This document shows, piece after piece, positions 3 through 6,979 of a stretch of 9,213 nt of DNA (within the stretch, counting starts at the first letter, position 1; every line of letters starts with the position of its first letter). Source of the DNA: Candidatus Pacearchaeota archaeon (GTDB taxonomy: Archaea > Nanoarchaeota > Nanoarchaeia > Pacearchaeales > GW2011-AR1); NCBI GenBank assembly GCA_002690445.1, contig NZER01000452.1, forward strand, positions 1 to 9,213, in the 5' to 3' direction. The translations under genes were made by a program, and so were the position numbers. The notes under the pieces were generated by a model. The model was given only the letters and a program-made list of their open reading frames with translations. It did not search any database and was not told where the DNA came from.

Positions 3-407
3 GACCAAACAACTATGTTTAATATGCACGACTTAACTGTTGAAACATTAAATGAACAAGATTTGTTGTTATATGGTTTTGAACTTGCAATAGCAAGACC
101 TGTTAATAGGATTGGTTTTGATAATGGTAGTAATTTTAAACCACAAGGATATGCTTTGGGTGGCTATGAGGTAACAGGTTCACTTACTTGTAAAAGGGAT
201 GCTGAAAGCACAGATGCAATAGATACATCGACACCTGTTGCATTGGCTTTATCAGCAGGGGATGTATTCCAGATTGATGCACCAAAAGTTATGGTAGATG
301 GTTCAGGAATAAGTTATGATGATGATGGTTGGAAACAAACTATTCCTTTTAGATGCACATATAGTGGAGCAACAACAAGCACTATAGTCGAAATAAAAAC
401 AGCATAA
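3..407 (+). CDS. Phage tail tube (major tail) protein, 5'-truncated by window edge
   Basis: The reading frame is open from the first in-frame codon (base 3) to the TAA at 405-407. The first ATG, at 15, has no Shine-Dalgarno sequence before it, so the gene probably begins upstream and only the C-terminal part (about 134 residues) is seen. The visible part is rich in predicted beta strand, with a GGYEVTGSLTCKRDAES stretch and a C-terminal strand-rich end (TIPFRCTYSG), which fits a tail tube protein that stacks in rings around the tape measure. I recognise the style from uncultured marine phage tube proteins by memory, not by search. The position directly before a frameshifted chaperone pair and a tape measure is the standard place for the tube gene in long-tailed phages, and this context carries most of the call. 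Its stop overlaps the next start by one base (TAATG), suggesting coupled translation. Confidence 0.72.
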   Translation, partial: DQTTMFNMHDLTVETLNEQDLLLYGFELAIARPVNRIGFDNGSNFKPQGYALGGYEVTGSLTCKRDAESTDAIDTSTPVALALSAGDVFQIDAPKVMVDGSGISYDDDGWKQTIPFRCTYSGATTSTIVEIKTA

Positions 408-682
408 TGCCTGATAAGATCAAAGTAAAACCAGAAAAAGGAACTGATTTCAAAGAAATTGAAGTTACTACAAAGGATTGGAACCTTGAAACAAGAAGAA
501 CTATTAATAGGCTTGTACGCCAGGGACATCTGGAAAAGAATGGTTATTGTATGTTCGATGCCTGTTGTGATGTATTAAATCTTGCAACAACACTAACAGA
601 GGAAGATGTATTTAATCTGTCAAAAGATGAGATTGAAGTTATTGCACTCAAATTGGCAGATGAAATTAATAAAAAAAAATAG
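407..682 (+). CDS. Tail assembly chaperone, short (gpG-like) form
   Basis: A 91-residue acidic/basic helical protein with no signal peptide or membrane segment, rich in K, E and D, ending in three lysines encoded by the A9 run. By position between tube and tape measure, by size and by its frameshift site it matches the gpG role in lambda-type phages: a cytoplasmic chaperone that coats the tape measure before the tube polymerises. Sequence alone does not place it in a named family. The start is the ATG at 407, overlapping the upstream stop by one base with no obvious Shine-Dalgarno, so translation is probably coupled to the tube gene. The stop TAG at 680-682 follows directly after the slippery run, so most ribosomes would make this short form and a fraction would make a longer fusion through base 1104. 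Confidence 0.72.
   Translation: MPDKIKVKPEKGTDFKEIEVTTKDWNLETRRTINRLVRQGHLEKNGYCMFDACCDVLNLATTLTEEDVFNLSKDEIEVIALKLADEINKKK
671..682 (+). promoter_or_regulatory. Predicted -1 programmed ribosomal frameshift site (A9 then TAG)
   Basis: Nine consecutive A residues occupy 671-679, read in the zero frame as AAA AAA AAA and followed at once by TAG (680-682). The heptamer A AAA AAA at 673-679 allows both tRNA-Lys molecules to re-pair one base back. After the slip the next codon is ATA at 679-681, and that frame stays open to 1104. I see no convincing downstream stem-loop or upstream Shine-Dalgarno stimulator by eye. An assembly error in the homopolymer is the main alternative: one extra A would fuse the frames outright. 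Confidence 0.72.
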
Positions 683-1104
683 ATGAATTACTGCTTCGGA
701 TCAATGTATGGATTAGCCACAACGGACTTCAACAAGGTGCTTATACAGACGTTTCATTCCCTTATGTAGCATTATGTCCAAGTAATCGTAGAAAGTCCGA
801 ATTTAAGGGTATTACGGATGTGTATGATGAAATTATAAGACTATATGAAGAAGCAGAATCAAAAGGGTTTAATGTGGGAGAAGCAATATACACACAATCA
901 TTTTTCTTTGCCGATCATGGTCTTCTAATTGATGAAGATTGTCAGGATCGCATAACAGAATACAAATTTTGTAAGCAATTTAACTGCCCACCTTATCCTT
1001 CCCTAAAAGAAACACCACCAAATATAATAGATGATTTCCTCATAATTGAGGAGGAGGTCAATAATTGCATGGCTAAAAAGCAAAGGGAGAAATCTAATGC
1101 CTAA
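679..1104 (+). CDS. Tail assembly chaperone, frameshift extension (gpT-like part of the gpGT fusion)
   Basis: This frame is open from just after the slippery run to TAA at 1102-1104 and adds 141 residues, giving a fusion of about 232 residues with the 91-residue short form. It has protein-like composition all along, including the stretch before any possible start (VWISHNGLQQGAYTDVSFPY), which argues against an independent gene. The only upstream-looking start is a GTG at 820 with a weak AAGGG before it; using that would leave about 140 coding-like bases unexplained. The C-terminal part (CKQFNCPPYP, then TPPNIIDDFLIIEEEVNN) resembles small proteins found just before tape measure genes. In known phages the T portion recruits tube subunits to the chaperoned tape measure. 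Its end overlaps the tape measure start by eight bases. The -1 relation to the upstream frame is directly seen; the function is inferred from synteny. Confidence 0.7.
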   Translation: MDELLLRINVWISHNGLQQGAYTDVSFPYVALCPSNRRKSEFKGITDVYDEIIRLYEEAESKGFNVGEAIYTQSFFFADHGLLIDEDCQDRITEYKFCKQFNCPPYPSLKETPPNIIDDFLIIEEEVNNCMAKKQREKSNA

Positions 1105-3154
1105 TTTTTTCATAAATGTAAAAGAAAGAGGTGCAAAAGCTGCTGGTAAAAGTATAGGGTCTTTAACAGGGTCTTTGAAACGCTTGGCATTACAAGCTGT
1201 TGGGGTTGCTGCTGTTATGCAGGGATTGAGAAAATCTATACAAATGTCGGCAGAAATGGAAGGTGTAAAAAGGGGATTTGACAATCTGGCTAAATCGTCA
1301 GGCTTTACAACTGGAGCATTTAACAAATTCAAATCTGCAACTGATAACACCATAGATAGCTTAACACTTATGAAAAAAGCAAATGCTGCTATGTTGCTTG
1401 GTATTACTGACAGTGAAGATCAGATGGCAAGTATGTTTGATGTAGCACAAAGGCTTGGGCAATCTCTTGGTATTGATACAGTTCAGTCTATTGACAGCCT
1501 TGTTACTGGTATGGGTCGGCAATGTTTAACCTCCGATTCTTTTATTTCTACAAAAAATGGAATGAAACAGATAATTGATATAAAAGAAGGTGATATTGTA
1601 TTATCATATCAAGATGATAAAATAATAGAAACAGAAGTAACCCATCTTCATAATAATGGTATTCAGCCAATATATATTGTTACTTTCAAAGATGGTAAAT
1701 ATATAAAATCCACAGACAATCATAGATATTTAACAGATAACGGATGGAAATACTTAAGCGAATTAGATAGTGGCTCAAAAATATTAAATATAGATAATGA
1801 ATATTCTGAAATACATTCAATTAACTCTTTTGGTGAAGAAGATGTTTATGATTTAACTGTACCTGAAACAGCAAACTTTTTTGCAAATGGTTTATGTGTT
1901 CATAATTCTAAACTCATGCTGGACAATCTGGGTATTATGGTAGATACTAATAAATCATATAAGGATTTTGCAGAAGCCAATAATATATCAGTTTCTGCAA
2001 TGACAGATACGCAAAGAAAACAGGCATTTGTTAATGCAGCCATGAAAGAGGCTAATTTTCTTGTATCTCAATTAGGAGAAGAACAATTAACAACAAAAGA
2101 TAAGATTGCACAGATGAATAATGCTTTCGCTGATCTGGCAGTTACTATGGGCGATACTATTGCACCAATAATAACACAGGTTGCTTTAGGGGTGGCAGGT
2201 TTAATTGAAGGTCTTGCTGAACTTGGAATGACACCACTTGAAAAAATGGTTAAATCGTTACAAGAATTAGGTGCAGACGCAGGACTTGTAAAGGCCTTAC
2301 AAGTTGATGTAGCAAATGAAAAAATATCTAATCTTGAATCGCAACTTGGAAGATTTAATGAAAAACAAATACGAGCATCAATAGAATTGTCCAAGCAAAA
2401 AACTGAACAAACATTAGGTGATATTGCTTATTGGGAACAAGAAAATATGCTAACTGATGACCTTACAAAAAAGGCTCAAGAATGGTTGGATGAAGATCAA
2501 AAATCATTAGAAGCAGGGTTGCGACAATTAGAAATAATTAATCAAATAAAAGCATTACAATCAGAAATAGTAGAATTGAAAAAAGAAGAAACAGAGCCAG
2601 AAGATAAAAAAGAAGTAGTAATAAAAAAAACAAAAGAAGAATTAGAAGCAGAACTTAAACTTGCTGCACAAAGAAAACAAGCAAGTAAAGATTTTGTTTC
2701 CAATATGCAGAATATGGCTAAAGCACCTGGCTGGGAAGGAATGGAAAATGCAGCAAAAAGAGCAGCACAAGTTCAAGCTTTGGTAGATGCCTATGCAGGT
2801 GCTAATGCTGCTTTTAAAGCAATGGCTGGGATTCCTGTTATTGGCCCTGCATTGGGTGCTACTGCATATGTTGCTGCTCTTACATCTGGATTGGCTTCTG
2901 TTAAACAAATAGAAGCTGCACAATTTGGTATGGATCAGGTTGTTTCACAACCAACTCTTATAATGGCTGGTGAAGCAGGAGCAGAACAAGTATCAATCAC
3001 ACCACTTGAAGGGCCTAACCTGGAAGGCCCACAAGGATCATCTGTAACTGTGAATGTGTCTGGTAATGTGCTTTCAGATACATTTGTTGAGGAGGAATTA
3101 GCAGAAAAAATCCGTGAAGGAATTAGGCGTGGGGTTGATTTTGGGATTAGCTAA
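1097..3154 (+). CDS. Phage tail tape measure protein interrupted by a mini-intein
   Basis: The precursor is 685 residues; removing the intein (residues 143-270) leaves 557. The tape measure sets tail length, fills the tube lumen and is ejected at infection. Seen in order: a basic N-terminus with a short hydrophobic helix (about 25-45); a helical region ending in SLVTGMGRQ, which continues after the intein as SKLMLDNLGI, together a conserved tape-measure motif; an apolar helix near 352-377; a long charged coiled coil about 406-535; a glycine/alanine-rich apolar segment about 576-603 that could insert in a membrane; and a C-terminus (VTVNVSGNVLSDTFVEEELAEKI) typical of tape measures. The ATG at 1097 is chosen because AAGGGAG at 1083-1089 precedes it and it overlaps the chaperone stop; a TTG further upstream (1046) lacks such a site. 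At roughly 0.15 nm per residue the spliced form predicts a tail of about 80-85 nm (inference). Confidence 0.92.
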   Translation: MPNFFINVKERGAKAAGKSIGSLTGSLKRLALQAVGVAAVMQGLRKSIQMSAEMEGVKRGFDNLAKSSGFTTGAFNKFKSATDNTIDSLTLMKKANAAMLLGITDSEDQMASMFDVAQRLGQSLGIDTVQSIDSLVTGMGRQCLTSDSFISTKNGMKQIIDIKEGDIVLSYQDDKIIETEVTHLHNNGIQPIYIVTFKDGKYIKSTDNHRYLTDNGWKYLSELDSGSKILNIDNEYSEIHSINSFGEEDVYDLTVPETANFFANGLCVHNSKLMLDNLGIMVDTNKSYKDFAEANNISVSAMTDTQRKQAFVNAAMKEANFLVSQLGEEQLTTKDKIAQMNNAFADLAVTMGDTIAPIITQVALGVAGLIEGLAELGMTPLEKMVKSLQELGADAGLVKALQVDVANEKISNLESQLGRFNEKQIRASIELSKQKTEQTLGDIAYWEQENMLTDDLTKKAQEWLDEDQKSLEAGLRQLEIINQIKALQSEIVELKKEETEPEDKKEVVIKKTKEELEAELKLAAQRKQASKDFVSNMQNMAKAPGWEGMENAAKRAAQVQALVDAYAGANAAFKAMAGIPVIGPALGATAYVAALTSGLASVKQIEAAQFGMDQVVSQPTLIMAGEAGAEQVSITPLEGPNLEGPQGSSVTVNVSGNVLSDTFVEEELAEKIREGIRRGVDFGIS
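1523..1906 (+). other. Mini-intein (Hint domain) within the tape measure protein, no homing endonuclease
   Basis: 128 in-frame residues (143-270 of the precursor). The N-terminal block starts with Cys143 (CLTSDSFISTKNG, then IKEGDIVLSY). Block B is STDNHRYL, with the T-x-x-H pair Thr206 and His209. Block F is VYDLTVPETANFF, and block G ends in VHN with His269-Asn270, followed by Ser271 as the +1 nucleophile. All residues for class 1 protein splicing are present, so removal and religation of GMGRQ to SKLML is predicted. The block F position often held by His (HNF in many inteins) is Ala259 here; other active inteins also lack it, but splicing rate could be affected. No LAGLIDADG or other nuclease motif lies between blocks B and F, where only about 40 residues separate them. 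GC by hand count is 75/300 (1561-1860) against 119/300 in 1201-1500, supporting separate ancestry. Confidence 0.92.
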
Positions 3155-3305
3155 TCTTCAAACAAGAAAACAGCGATGGGATGTATGCAATGCTTGTGAA
3201 TATATTACAGAAACTCGTAGATGCCTTGAATGTGGATGTTTTTTAAAATTAAAAATTCTCTTTAGTCGTATGAGTTGCCCTATAAATAAATGGAATAGTG
3301 CATGA
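3129..3305 (+). CDS. Small cysteine-rich, probable zinc-ribbon protein of the tail module
   Basis: About 58 residues with the pattern WDVCNACEY, ETRRCLECGCFLKLK and MSCPINKW: two CxxC pairs (the second followed by another Cys) and a last Cys before PINKW. Such spacing fits a compact zinc-binding fold. From memory, very similar short proteins with an RCxxCGCFxxLK and SCPxNKW signature occur in many marine phages, usually with no assigned function. The start is uncertain: GTG at 3129 has AAGGA at 3117-3121 with seven bases between, while GTG at 3114 and TTG at 3135 or 3141 are also in frame. It overlaps the tape measure end by 26 bases in another frame, and its TGA overlaps the next ATG (ATGA). 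Placement between tape measure and hub suggests a role in tail-tip assembly or a host-takeover factor, but nothing in the sequence decides this. Confidence 0.8.
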   Translation: MGLILGLANLQTRKQRWDVCNACEYITETRRCLECGCFLKLKILFSRMSCPINKWNSA

Positions 3306-6300
3306 GTTTTGCCACCGACATAACAGGGAAGGACACCAATATCTATCCTGTAGTAGTTATTGGCGAGAGTATTTATATATCAACAAACTCAACCACTATT
3401 GATGGCCAATATTATAAGCCAATATTATTATCTATGCCATCTCTGAAAGAGTCTATTGATATTGAAAAGACAAGAAAATACAAAATCAGTTCATTAACTT
3501 TATCTATTAGCTTATATGAGGTCGATGGAGAGCGTTTTAATGAATCGGTAGGTGATAGCTCACTTATCAATCAAAGTGTCGATATTTACTGGATTTCGCC
3601 TACTGTAACGCAATTGGGTGATGGGACAGGGACTGAAGGTAATGCAAAGCTAATATTTAAGGGAACTGTTTTGCGTTATAGTCACGATGACGATAAAGCA
3701 AGTATAGTCGTTGAAGATAAAAGCCAGTCTATTTTTCATAAAGATTTACCAATCGAAACCATGCCATTAAATCAGAACATACCAGTTCAATCGAGGGGGA
3801 ACCCTGTGCCAATGTGTTATGGTCATGTCGATAGAAGTCCTGTGGTGTTTGGGACAGGTCATAAAGAATTAATAGTAGATTGGCAACCGATCACATCATA
3901 TGAGGAAAATATAAATATATTTTCTGTTACTGAAGGCTCTCTATATATGCACCAAGATAGCCATTATATTAATGTATTCAAGGCAGATCAATATGAATAT
4001 CAACCTATAACTCATAGTAATCCTAAAATAATATTCAATTCAAATAATATAGCTATATTTCCAGAAACAGAAACGGAACTAACAGGTGATGGGGGTACTG
4101 GTTCTACAACTGCTACTGGTGAATTAATAGAACCAGAGTTAAAATGTGCTGATAGTTCTAAAAATATATCTTTATCCTTAACAAATCCAGATGATCCAAC
4201 TTGGGGGGATCACGATACAGAAGGATTTACATTAACTGAATATCCTAAAACCATTGATGCTATTACAGATGGCTCTTATGACGTTAATAACATTGAATTA
4301 CATGGTGGGGATCAACATCAAACTGGAGGAGAGACAGTAAATTCAGTTCAACATCTTGCAGATCAAATACTATTTTACGATGTAAATGTTGGAAATATAT
4401 TAATAGAATTTAAAATATTATATAAATTTCTTTTTGGTGATGATGATGATGAACAGCTTATGATAAAATCATTATTAAAATTAAATCTATCATTTGTTCC
4501 ACAATATGACTATAATAAAGATAAAGAAATATATGTAACTAACTTTGCAATAAATGGCAGGAATTTAACCAATATTATAAATTGGGTTCCTACAGAGGGA
4601 TCAGACCCAGGTGGAACTTGGGCTATTGTAATGTCCAATGCACAAACAGCTTCTGGCGATTGGGGTGGTGATAGTTTTGGAAGGCATTGGCTTGGTTCAT
4701 TTTATACAATAACCACTTATCCATCAGCATATTCTGCATTAAATGAATTATTTAATTTTATATCTTTAGGAAATGGTGGTAATAACGCTGATGCTGATTT
4801 GAATATAGATATTGGTGTTGAAAAAAATGGTAACAATATAGATTCAACATTACATATATATGGAGAATTAAATGAAATAGATATAGTTAGAAAGATATAT
4901 GCAACTAAAATATTTAAGAAAGATTATTATGCTAATATAAAAGGTAGGAAAGGACAAAACGAATACGGAGAAAATATATTATTAGAAACTGCACCTGATA
5001 TAATATCCCATATTATGAATGTGGAATTGTTACCTTCTGGGGCAGGAGATATAGTAGCACAAAACGAGGAAGCATATTCATCATGGAAATACGCATTTAC
5101 AGTAGCATCAAAGAAGATTAACAGTAAAAAATTATTTGAAAATATTAGTTCTGCAAGTCCTTATATCCCACATTATAATAATCTTGGTGAATTTTCCTTT
5201 GATGTTATCAAAATGTCATATAATCTTGAAGATATTGCAGCATCAACAAGAATTGAAGCATCAGATTGTATCTCCTGGTCATATAAACGTAGTAAAATCG
5301 AAGAAATTTTCACTTCTATTGAGCTAAAGTTTAAAATAGATTACGCAGCCGATGAATTTTTAGAAACAACTGGTGTGATCAATATAGATGATACTGATAT
5401 ATTGCCTGTCGGAAGTACATATACAAGGGATTATTATGGGCTGGAGGGAGATGATAATACAACTCTTGTAATTGATGATGATAGGGGCAAATACATTCGT
5501 GATCTTAATACTGCAAATCAATTTGTTAGGTGGATGTTACTTTGGCATTGCAATTCTCACCTTCTTATAACTGTTAGATTAAGCCTAAAATATATAGATA
5601 TTCAAGTTGGTTCACTTTGTTCCTTCGATAAGGTCATGGGAAATGTTAAGCCTTATAATATTGATTATGGATATGATGCAGATTATCTTGTTGATGGCAC
5701 TCCATATGTAGGGCATGAACTGAATGGACAACAGATTTATCCAATTTTCATGTGTATAAAATCGACAAAAACGCTGGAATATTGTGAATATACATTATGT
5801 CAATTACATAATTTATCTAATGAATATGAATTTACAGAAGCAGCATGGGGGTGCAGACAACAAGCAGCTTGGAATTATAACCCAGAAGCTGATTTTGATG
5901 ATGGTAGTTGTGTGCTTGGTAGTAGTTTTATACATGGAGATGACTGTCCATTGCAAAGTGATCCTTTAGATGTGACACTATTTTCTTCAAATCCTACTGA
6001 ACATGATATAAACGATCCCTGGGTGTTTAGTGATACAGTAGATTATGGAGAGGGTGTATCTGTGCATGATGCAGCAGAAGCATATTGGCATCAATATGTA
6101 GAGAATAAAGACGATCCTGCCCCTGACCCCATTATACTATTGCAAACTAATTGTGTTTTTGACATTCAAGGACATAATCTAAAAGCAATATATTTTTCAT
6201 ATTATGTTGATCCAGGTGGGGATCAGGATGTGTTTATGAAAGAGCATCTCATTACTCAAGACCCAGAAGAAAACGATTATGGCTCATCAATCGGTTATGC

Positions 6301-6979
6301 AATACCAATAGATCAGGAGCTTAAAGATGCTTATATATCAGAATATGCTGGTGGAGGGTATAATTTAAAATGGAAACTAAAATTTGTATTTGAATATGAT
6401 GCTACCGATGAATTTGGTTTGCCTATCGTTCCAGATTATCAATATGGTAATTTTTATTATAATTTTAAATCAGATTTATTTAATGCTGGTTCACAATTTC
6501 CGTCACCAAGCACTTATAATGGTATAATACAAACTAACTCTGAAGGTGATGGAATATATGAAACAAATGAATTTGATTTTAATTTATTAAATGGACTATT
6601 TGATCCAGGAATATGGAATCTTGAGGGCTATGGAGTACAAATTAAAATGGTTTATAAATTTAATCCTGTAGTGGAAAATGTTGGTGAAGGAACTACTCAA
6701 TTTGAACGATCTATAGCACAACAAAATGAAATCAATATTCATTTTACAGGGCAAGGTGATGTTGAAGGTGATATAGGTGATATGAACAATGATGGGTCTT
6801 GGGATATAATTGATGTCGTAATGTTAACTCAATGTCTTTTAGGTGGATATTGCCATAGTGAGTATGGTTGGCAAGGGGATATGGATGGCAATAGTGCTTA
6901 TACTATATTAGACCTTGTTTCGCTTACAAACTGTGTTCTTGATGCTGATTGTGCTGAAAAATACGGAGCAGGAAATTAA
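3302..6979 (+). CDS. Large tail hub/tip-like protein with C-terminal DDGSC motif and dockerin-like domain
   Basis: 1225 residues. The N-terminal third (YPVVVIGESIYIST; YKISSLTLSISLYEVDGERF; VLRYSHDDDKASIVVEDKSQ; PVPMCYGHVDRSPV) and a later part (FVRWMLLWHCNSHLLITVRL; YIDIQVGSLCSFDKVM; YPIFMCIKST to CQLHNL at 833-838) match, from memory, a tail protein family widespread in uncultured marine phages; in position and layout it resembles a baseplate hub or tail tip. Residues about 260-640 are very AT-rich and low in recognisable motifs. After residue 838 comes an extra region of about 390 residues: GC at 850-851 leading to NYNP and DDGSC at 866-870, a beta-rich domain of unknown fold (about 880-1150), and two calcium-loop repeats (1160-1171 and 1193-1204). 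I infer that this added part is exposed and contacts the host. There is no signal peptide. The ATG overlaps the previous TGA, and the stop overlaps the next ATG. Hub assignment is moderate; structural tail role is firmer. Confidence 0.75.
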   Translation: MSFATDITGKDTNIYPVVVIGESIYISTNSTTIDGQYYKPILLSMPSLKESIDIEKTRKYKISSLTLSISLYEVDGERFNESVGDSSLINQSVDIYWISPTVTQLGDGTGTEGNAKLIFKGTVLRYSHDDDKASIVVEDKSQSIFHKDLPIETMPLNQNIPVQSRGNPVPMCYGHVDRSPVVFGTGHKELIVDWQPITSYEENINIFSVTEGSLYMHQDSHYINVFKADQYEYQPITHSNPKIIFNSNNIAIFPETETELTGDGGTGSTTATGELIEPELKCADSSKNISLSLTNPDDPTWGDHDTEGFTLTEYPKTIDAITDGSYDVNNIELHGGDQHQTGGETVNSVQHLADQILFYDVNVGNILIEFKILYKFLFGDDDDEQLMIKSLLKLNLSFVPQYDYNKDKEIYVTNFAINGRNLTNIINWVPTEGSDPGGTWAIVMSNAQTASGDWGGDSFGRHWLGSFYTITTYPSAYSALNELFNFISLGNGGNNADADLNIDIGVEKNGNNIDSTLHIYGELNEIDIVRKIYATKIFKKDYYANIKGRKGQNEYGENILLETAPDIISHIMNVELLPSGAGDIVAQNEEAYSSWKYAFTVASKKINSKKLFENISSASPYIPHYNNLGEFSFDVIKMSYNLEDIAASTRIEASDCISWSYKRSKIEEIFTSIELKFKIDYAADEFLETTGVINIDDTDILPVGSTYTRDYYGLEGDDNTTLVIDDDRGKYIRDLNTANQFVRWMLLWHCNSHLLITVRLSLKYIDIQVGSLCSFDKVMGNVKPYNIDYGYDADYLVDGTPYVGHELNGQQIYPIFMCIKSTKTLEYCEYTLCQLHNLSNEYEFTEAAWGCRQQAAWNYNPEADFDDGSCVLGSSFIHGDDCPLQSDPLDVTLFSSNPTEHDINDPWVFSDTVDYGEGVSVHDAAEAYWHQYVENKDDPAPDPIILLQTNCVFDIQGHNLKAIYFSYYVDPGGDQDVFMKEHLITQDPEENDYGSSIGYAIPIDQELKDAYISEYAGGGYNLKWKLKFVFEYDATDEFGLPIVPDYQYGNFYYNFKSDLFNAGSQFPSPSTYNGIIQTNSEGDGIYETNEFDFNLLNGLFDPGIWNLEGYGVQIKMVYKFNPVVENVGEGTTQFERSIAQQNEINIHFTGQGDVEGDIGDMNNDGSWDIIDVVMLTQCLLGGYCHSEYGWQGDMDGNSAYTILDLVSLTNCVLDADCAEKYGAGN
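5849..5911 (+). other. GC...NYNP...DDGSC motif in the tail protein
   Basis: Residues 850-870 of the 1225-residue tail protein. Key residues are Gly850-Cys851, Asn858-Tyr859-Asn860-Pro861, and Asp866-Asp867-Gly868-Ser869-Cys870. This short cysteine-bounded motif is common, often in tandem, on secreted and surface proteins of marine Bacteroidota and Marinimicrobia, where it acts as a linker or presentation repeat. Here it sits exactly where the recognisable phage tail domain ends, marking the junction to the added C-terminal region. Only one copy is present. Confidence 0.75.
6773..6949 (+). other. Dockerin-like domain (two calcium-binding loop-helix repeats)
   Basis: Residues about 1158-1216, at the extreme C-terminus of the tail protein. 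The first loop has Asp1160, Asn1162, Asp1164, Gly1165, Asp1168 and Asp1171, the canonical DxNxDGxxDxxD spacing, followed by a helix (IIDVVMLTQCLLGG). The second has Asp1193, Asp1195, Asn1197, Thr1201 and Asp1204, slightly degenerate, followed by ILDLVSLTNCVL. Each repeat ends with cysteines (C1179 region and the CVLDADC end) that could bond. Type I dockerins fold on binding calcium and dock to cohesins, or act as surface-anchoring tails in non-cellulosomal bacteria. What it binds here is unknown. Confidence 0.82.

What the first reader, a model, noticed from the sequence alone, without database searches (positions are those of the whole stretch)
1523..1906. Endonuclease-free mini-intein placed exactly in the conserved GRQ/S motif of a tape measure protein
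The flanks rejoin perfectly as GMGRQ-SKLMLDNLGI, a recognisable tape-measure motif, so the insertion is clean and at a conserved site, as expected for inteins. Tape measures are less usual hosts than terminases, polymerases or helicases. As the protein is a molecular ruler, failure to splice would add 128 residues and a folded domain inside the tube, so splicing could gate tail assembly. GC is about 25% against about 40% in the sequence before it.
Basis: partly seen in the sequence, partly recalled or inferred. Interest (0 to 1): 0.85.

Follow-up and report, generated by a model that had tools for sequence, protein, structure and literature searches.

The report
Small intein in phage tape-measure protein
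A viral gene for the ruler protein that sets tail length carries a short self-removing protein insert of a known kind, and relatives with and without the insert suggest that it moves between viruses although it lacks the DNA-cutting enzyme such inserts usually use to spread.

Summary
Window 1523-1906 (+) encodes a 128-residue mini-intein, residues 143-270 of a 685-residue tape measure protein (TMP; ORF 1097-3154), between GRQ and S. On the isolated segment three intein profiles pass curated cut-offs. The AlphaFold model (pLDDT 96.6) matches DnaB mini-inteins at 1.0-1.1 A.

Of 238 listed proteins, 14 TMPs carry a complete intein at this site (128-130 aa, 38-39 residues between blocks B and F, no room for an endonuclease) and 170 read straight through the motif. 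One pair differs by two extein residues and exactly 129 inserted residues. On an extein tree of 124 rows the insert needs 10 gains or losses and one clade is rejected; a single gain would need 39 losses. Intein and extein topologies reject each other, though distances correlate.

So this is an ordinary class 1 mini-intein in a host protein for which I found no intein report, and its family appears horizontally mobile without an endonuclease in cis. Gating of tail assembly is unsupported. Splicing and the vehicle of transfer are inferred.

The parts
1097..3154 (+). Tape measure protein precursor, 685 aa (557 aa of extein)
   Evidence: ORF. Of 48 aligned family members, 35 match phrog_3779 tail length tape measure protein, best E 2.1e-18; P0001 itself is not among the 35 by its own table and has only weak tape-measure hits, best E 1.1e-4. 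Pfam tape-measure models hit only 1 of 48 each.
1097..1522 (+). N-extein, residues 1-142, ending ...SLVTGMGRQ
   Evidence: Aligns with intein-free homologues; predicted helix 128-140 ends just before the junction
1523..1906 (+). Mini-intein, 128 aa: C1, block B KSTDNHR, block F VYDLTVPETANF, block G ending VHN
   Evidence: PF14890, TIGR01443, TIGR01445; model pLDDT 96.6; Foldseek and VIA-align matches to DnaB mini-inteins; blocks read
1907..3151 (+). C-extein, beginning SKLMLDNLGI (+1 Ser)
   Evidence: Aligns with intein-free homologues; predicted helix 272-277 begins right after the junction
407..682 (+). Probable tail assembly chaperone, short form; context only
   Evidence: Inferred from position before the TMP; ends AAT AAA AAA AAA TAG with an A9 run at 671-679. 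No PHROG hit; its one Pfam hit, MerB, is below cut-off.
673..1104 (+). Probable -1 frameshift extension of the chaperone; context only
   Evidence: Open in the -1 frame; weak phrog_9001 tail assembly chaperone hit, E 0.0033 for 820-1101 and 0.012 for the longer reading
15..407 (+). Probable tail tube or minor tail protein, near the window edge; context only
   Evidence: phrog_290 minor tail protein E 1.8e-7; PF18906 phage tail tube below cut-off

Best explanation
The segment is a class 1, endonuclease-free cis-splicing intein inside a phage tape measure. After translation C1 attacks the Q142-C1 bond, the chain passes to the +1 Ser, the terminal Asn cyclises, and Q142 is joined to S271, giving a 557-residue tape measure and a free 128-residue Hint domain. 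The intein family behaves as a site-specific mobile passenger: it enters and leaves the most conserved motif of many tape measures, mainly between related ones. No copy seen carries its own homing endonuclease, so it most likely spreads by ordinary phage recombination across the conserved flanks or with an endonuclease supplied in trans. Shown: sequence, fold, exact boundaries, occupied and empty alleles, patchy distribution, conflicting trees. Inferred: that it splices (the reaction steps are textbook knowledge, recalled), and the vehicle of transfer.
Against: Intein and extein distances correlate strongly (Mantel r 0.81, 13 rows), so part of the history is shared descent or transfer only between kin, and higher intein identity may partly reflect a slower-evolving intein (median distance ratio about 0.5). 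A search for a co-conversion trace near the site was negative: near-flank identity of intein-bearing pairs is no higher than expected (residual -0.010; 67% of random sets as high). On the 139-row tree the label is nearly scattered at random (34 of 500 shuffles as low), and parsimony cannot tell gain from loss. Block F has Ala where many inteins have His (recalled). Splicing was not tested. No DNA of another intein-bearing TMP could be fetched, so transfer rests on protein data.
Confidence: 0.87

Rival explanations
1. Ancient intein inherited vertically in tape measures and lost again and again; no recent horizontal movement.
For: Intein and extein distances correlate, Mantel r 0.81; no co-conversion trace; no room for an endonuclease in any of the 14 copies; losses by recombination with empty alleles would be easy in phages (inference).
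Against: Needs 39 losses against 10 changes; topologies reject each other; identical inteins in P0121 and P0122, whose exteins are each closer to intein-free TMPs. Parsimony cannot tell gain from loss at single tips such as P0124/P0138.
Confidence: 0.2
2. Conditional splicing as a regulator: the intein holds the tape measure inactive until a signal allows splicing and so gates tail assembly.
For: An unspliced precursor would carry an extra folded 128-aa domain; conditional splicing is described for other inteins (PMC7156551 passages).
Against: Absent from very close relatives, so not required. The Cys fourth from the intein's end, a conceivable redox partner, is Asn in P0057 and P0068 and Ile in P0128.
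Confidence: 0.06
3. A bacterial intein-like (BIL) or other Hint domain that cleaves rather than splices.
Against: +1 Ser, terminal HN, exact insertion at a highly conserved site, and an empty allele of nearly the same gene. BILs sit at non-conserved sites (PMC2814812 passages).
Confidence: 0.03
4. Splicing-dead relic that leaves an oversized tape measure.
For: Activity was not measured; block F lacks the usual His (recalled).
Against: Blocks B and F are kept in 14 of 14 copies and the frame is open; 128 extra residues in a conserved helix-loop-helix junction would probably harm function (inference).
Confidence: 0.03

Closest known systems
NpuDnaB and Ssp DnaB mini-inteins (PDB 4o1r, 1mi8, 6frg)
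   Different: 34-36% identity in the structural alignment; host is a helicase, so another insertion site
Mini-intein of P0129, a protein with a P-loop-like motif, insertion at GAGK|S
   Same: 55% identity over 130 columns; likewise too short for an endonuclease
   Different: Unrelated host; no Pfam family other than intein/Hint models; not found again in viral contigs
Introns with homing endonucleases in the ICP1 tape measure (PMC10448857, section 21 read)
   Same: Selfish, self-removing element in a phage tape measure
   Different: Removed from RNA, not protein; endonuclease within the intron
Cluster J mycobacteriophage terminase inteins (PMC3706429, passages read)
   Same: Occupied and empty alleles with 97-98% identical exteins
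   Different: About 340 aa with an HNH endonuclease; host is the terminase

Membership tests
Intein (class 1, cis-splicing) | Hint splicing domain by curated profile | tested here: met
   PF14890 60.2 bits against 35.8; TIGR01443 33.3 against 15.6; TIGR01445 25.1 against 24.5 on the isolated segment, 19.8 (below) on the full protein
Intein (class 1, cis-splicing) | Nucleophile at residue 1, TxxH in block B, terminal HN, +1 Cys/Ser/Thr (definitions recalled) | tested here: met
   C1, STDNH, VHN, +1 S in the window. In the 13 other copies TxxH was found independently; C1, HN and S were fixed by the search pattern.
Intein (class 1, cis-splicing) | In-frame insertion absent from homologues, flanks contiguous there | tested here: met
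   170 of 238 listed proteins read straight through the motif; P0124/P0138 pair
Intein (class 1, cis-splicing) | Splicing activity | not testable with these tools
   No expression data
Mini-intein | No homing endonuclease domain | tested here: met
   39 residues between blocks B and F (38 in P0128); no endonuclease domain among the Pfam and NCBIfam matches of the segment
Homing (mobile) intein | Encodes or is tied to an endonuclease that cuts the empty site | tested here: inconclusive
   None in cis. None recognised by Pfam in nine plus-strand ORFs of the window. A trans-acting gene elsewhere cannot be excluded; no whole genome is held.
Tape measure protein | Homology to annotated tape measures; place after tail tube and chaperone genes; long helical protein | tested here: met
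   phrog_3779 in 35 of 48 members, though Pfam tape-measure models hit only 1 of 48 each; gene order; mostly helical low-confidence model, pLDDT 67.8. The window protein alone scores weakly.
BIL domain | Non-conserved insertion site (PMC2814812 passages) | tested here: not met
   Site lies in the most conserved patch

The most novel reading that the evidence does not exclude
An intein family that has lost its endonuclease for good still spreads actively between phages by other means, an endonuclease in trans (collaborative homing, described for introns) or plain phage recombination at a conserved motif, and has even crossed into an unrelated P-loop gene. Mini-inteins would then not be immobile relics.
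Probability: 0.4. Interest if true: 0.68.

Novelty: new member of a known kind. Interest (0 to 1): 0.5.

Why it matters
It adds the tape measure, a structural ruler, to the intein hosts, and gives natural occupied and empty allele pairs of an endonuclease-free intein. That makes testable how mini-inteins persist and move once the endonuclease is gone. A compact 128-residue intein with a +1 Ser may also be useful as a tool.

Tried and rejected
Searches failed because I gave the wrong frame; repeated as 8-10. The window's genome is not held. Scans for DNA of other intein-bearing tape measures: IMG/VR with patterns TG[IML]GRQCL and VYDL[TS]VPE gave 49 loci and GTDB genomes 67; a pattern test found no tape-measure junction in any of these 116. 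I sent the proteins of 38 of them to print and, by eye, those I saw were terminases, helicases, ribonucleotide reductases and the like. A scan with intein-free TMPs confirmed 124 loci and kept 80; all 80 show the empty motif, but one of its two patterns (QSKLMLD) can match only empty sites, so this is no occupancy estimate. tblastn in 50,697 phage records: with the TMP 65 records, 20 listed; with the intein alone 117 records, 60 listed. No listed row is named a tape measure, but 14 of the 20 and some of the 60 are unannotated Prevotella Lak phages, and others are unnamed proteins. Two leads whose match reached into the N-extein were followed: Microcystis phage Mvi-JY20 is a family A DNA polymerase; for Lak-A1 only a 159-residue frame was seen and the host was not identified. 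Plasmids: 3 weak hits. P0129 was not found in viral contigs.

Co-conversion near the site: negative. Clustering of the intein label on the 139-row tree was weak (34 of 500 shuffles as low; 6 of 500 on the 124-row tree).

Literature: eight full-text searches showed no report of an intein in a tape measure. Listings were partly capped (20 of 33, 40 of 42, 10 of 17, 10 of 21). I opened 14 papers by word search for passages and read one section. Inteins in other structural or morphogenesis genes are mentioned there: a minor head protein (PMC7468147) and a capsid morphogenesis protein (PMC8425127). Only openly licensed papers are held; PMC4760082 was not available.

The full precursor model (pLDDT 67.8) was used only for helix positions around the site and for the folded state of the insert.

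Full report

Host protein. The window protein alone has weak tape-measure matches, but 35 of 48 aligned relatives match phrog_3779, tail length tape measure protein; Pfam tape-measure models hit only 1 of 48 each. The gene follows a tail tube or minor tail gene and a probable chaperone pair with an A9 run at 671-679 and an open -1 frame to 1104. The precursor model (pLDDT 67.8) places the insertion between a helix ending at 140 and one beginning at 272.

Family. Three searches listed 238 proteins (the first found 374 and listed 120). Of these 238, 14 carry the complete intein at this same site, 2 more (P0009, P0131) are cut at the front with only its end, 170 read through the motif, and 52 match none of my patterns: intein hosts of other kinds, more distant tape measures and others not sorted. 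Lengths are 128-130 aa in all 14, and I saw no tape-measure copy with an endonuclease, although the length limits of the searches would have admitted one. C1, HN and +1 Ser in the 14 follow from the selecting pattern; blocks B and F were found independently in all 14. The site lies in the most conserved patch of the protein, as expected for inteins (PMC2814812 passages).

Mobility. P0124 and P0138 are an occupied and an empty allele of nearly the same gene: 2 differences in 608 extein residues. For 11 of the 14 copies the nearest extein is empty. On the 139-row extein tree the insert needs 12 changes. On a careful tree of 124 rows, with 15 long-branched or neighbouring rows left out, among them the intein-bearing P0128, it needs 10, and one clade is rejected at p-AU 4.1e-5. 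One gain would need 39 losses. The intein and extein topologies reject each other. Against a simple picture of free movement: distances of the two parts correlate (r 0.81), the intein may simply evolve more slowly, and there is no excess similarity beside the site. I read this as repeated exchange mainly between related phages, with a few wider jumps.

How it moves. No endonuclease lies in cis, and Pfam recognised none in nine plus-strand ORFs of the window. Two routes remain: homologous recombination in co-infected cells across the conserved flanks, or an endonuclease elsewhere in the genome. Collaborative homing of that kind is described for phage introns (PMC10448857 section 21). I hold plain recombination to be the likelier of the two, by inference only.

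A second host. The closest intein outside tape measures sits in P0129 at a Walker-A-like GAGK|S (motif recognised by eye), 55% identical and likewise too short for an endonuclease. Its host has no Pfam family besides intein and Hint models, so I leave it unnamed.

Novelty. Inteins, mini-inteins and selfish introns in tape measures are known, and inteins occur in other phage structural genes (PMC7468147, PMC8425127, passages). I found no report of an intein in a tape measure in eight full-text searches of an open-licence library. This makes it a new member of a known kind; the endonuclease-free spread is the part that could become more.

Noticed in passing
window 671-679, 673-1104: A9 run at the end of the 91-aa ORF 407-682, with the -1 frame open to 1104: probable programmed -1 frameshift of the tail assembly chaperone.
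   Followed up: partly
window 3302-6979: 1225-aa predicted protein downstream of the tape measure ends in a dockerin type I repeat (residues 1159-1211, PF00404 26.0 bits against cut-off 22.9), unusual for a phage tail region (recalled). No PHROG hit.
   Followed up: no
window 3114-3305: Small Cys-rich protein of family DUF6171 (28.8 bits against cut-off 27) between the tape measure and the next gene.
   Followed up: no
P0129 (protein): 55% identical endonuclease-free intein in a P-loop-like protein at GAGK|S: apparently the same intein lineage in an unrelated host gene.
   Followed up: partly
L098:1013-3328: Intein of several hundred residues in an ATPase-like protein (by eye) of a Woesearchaeota genome contig, insertion GGGK|S.
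   Followed up: no
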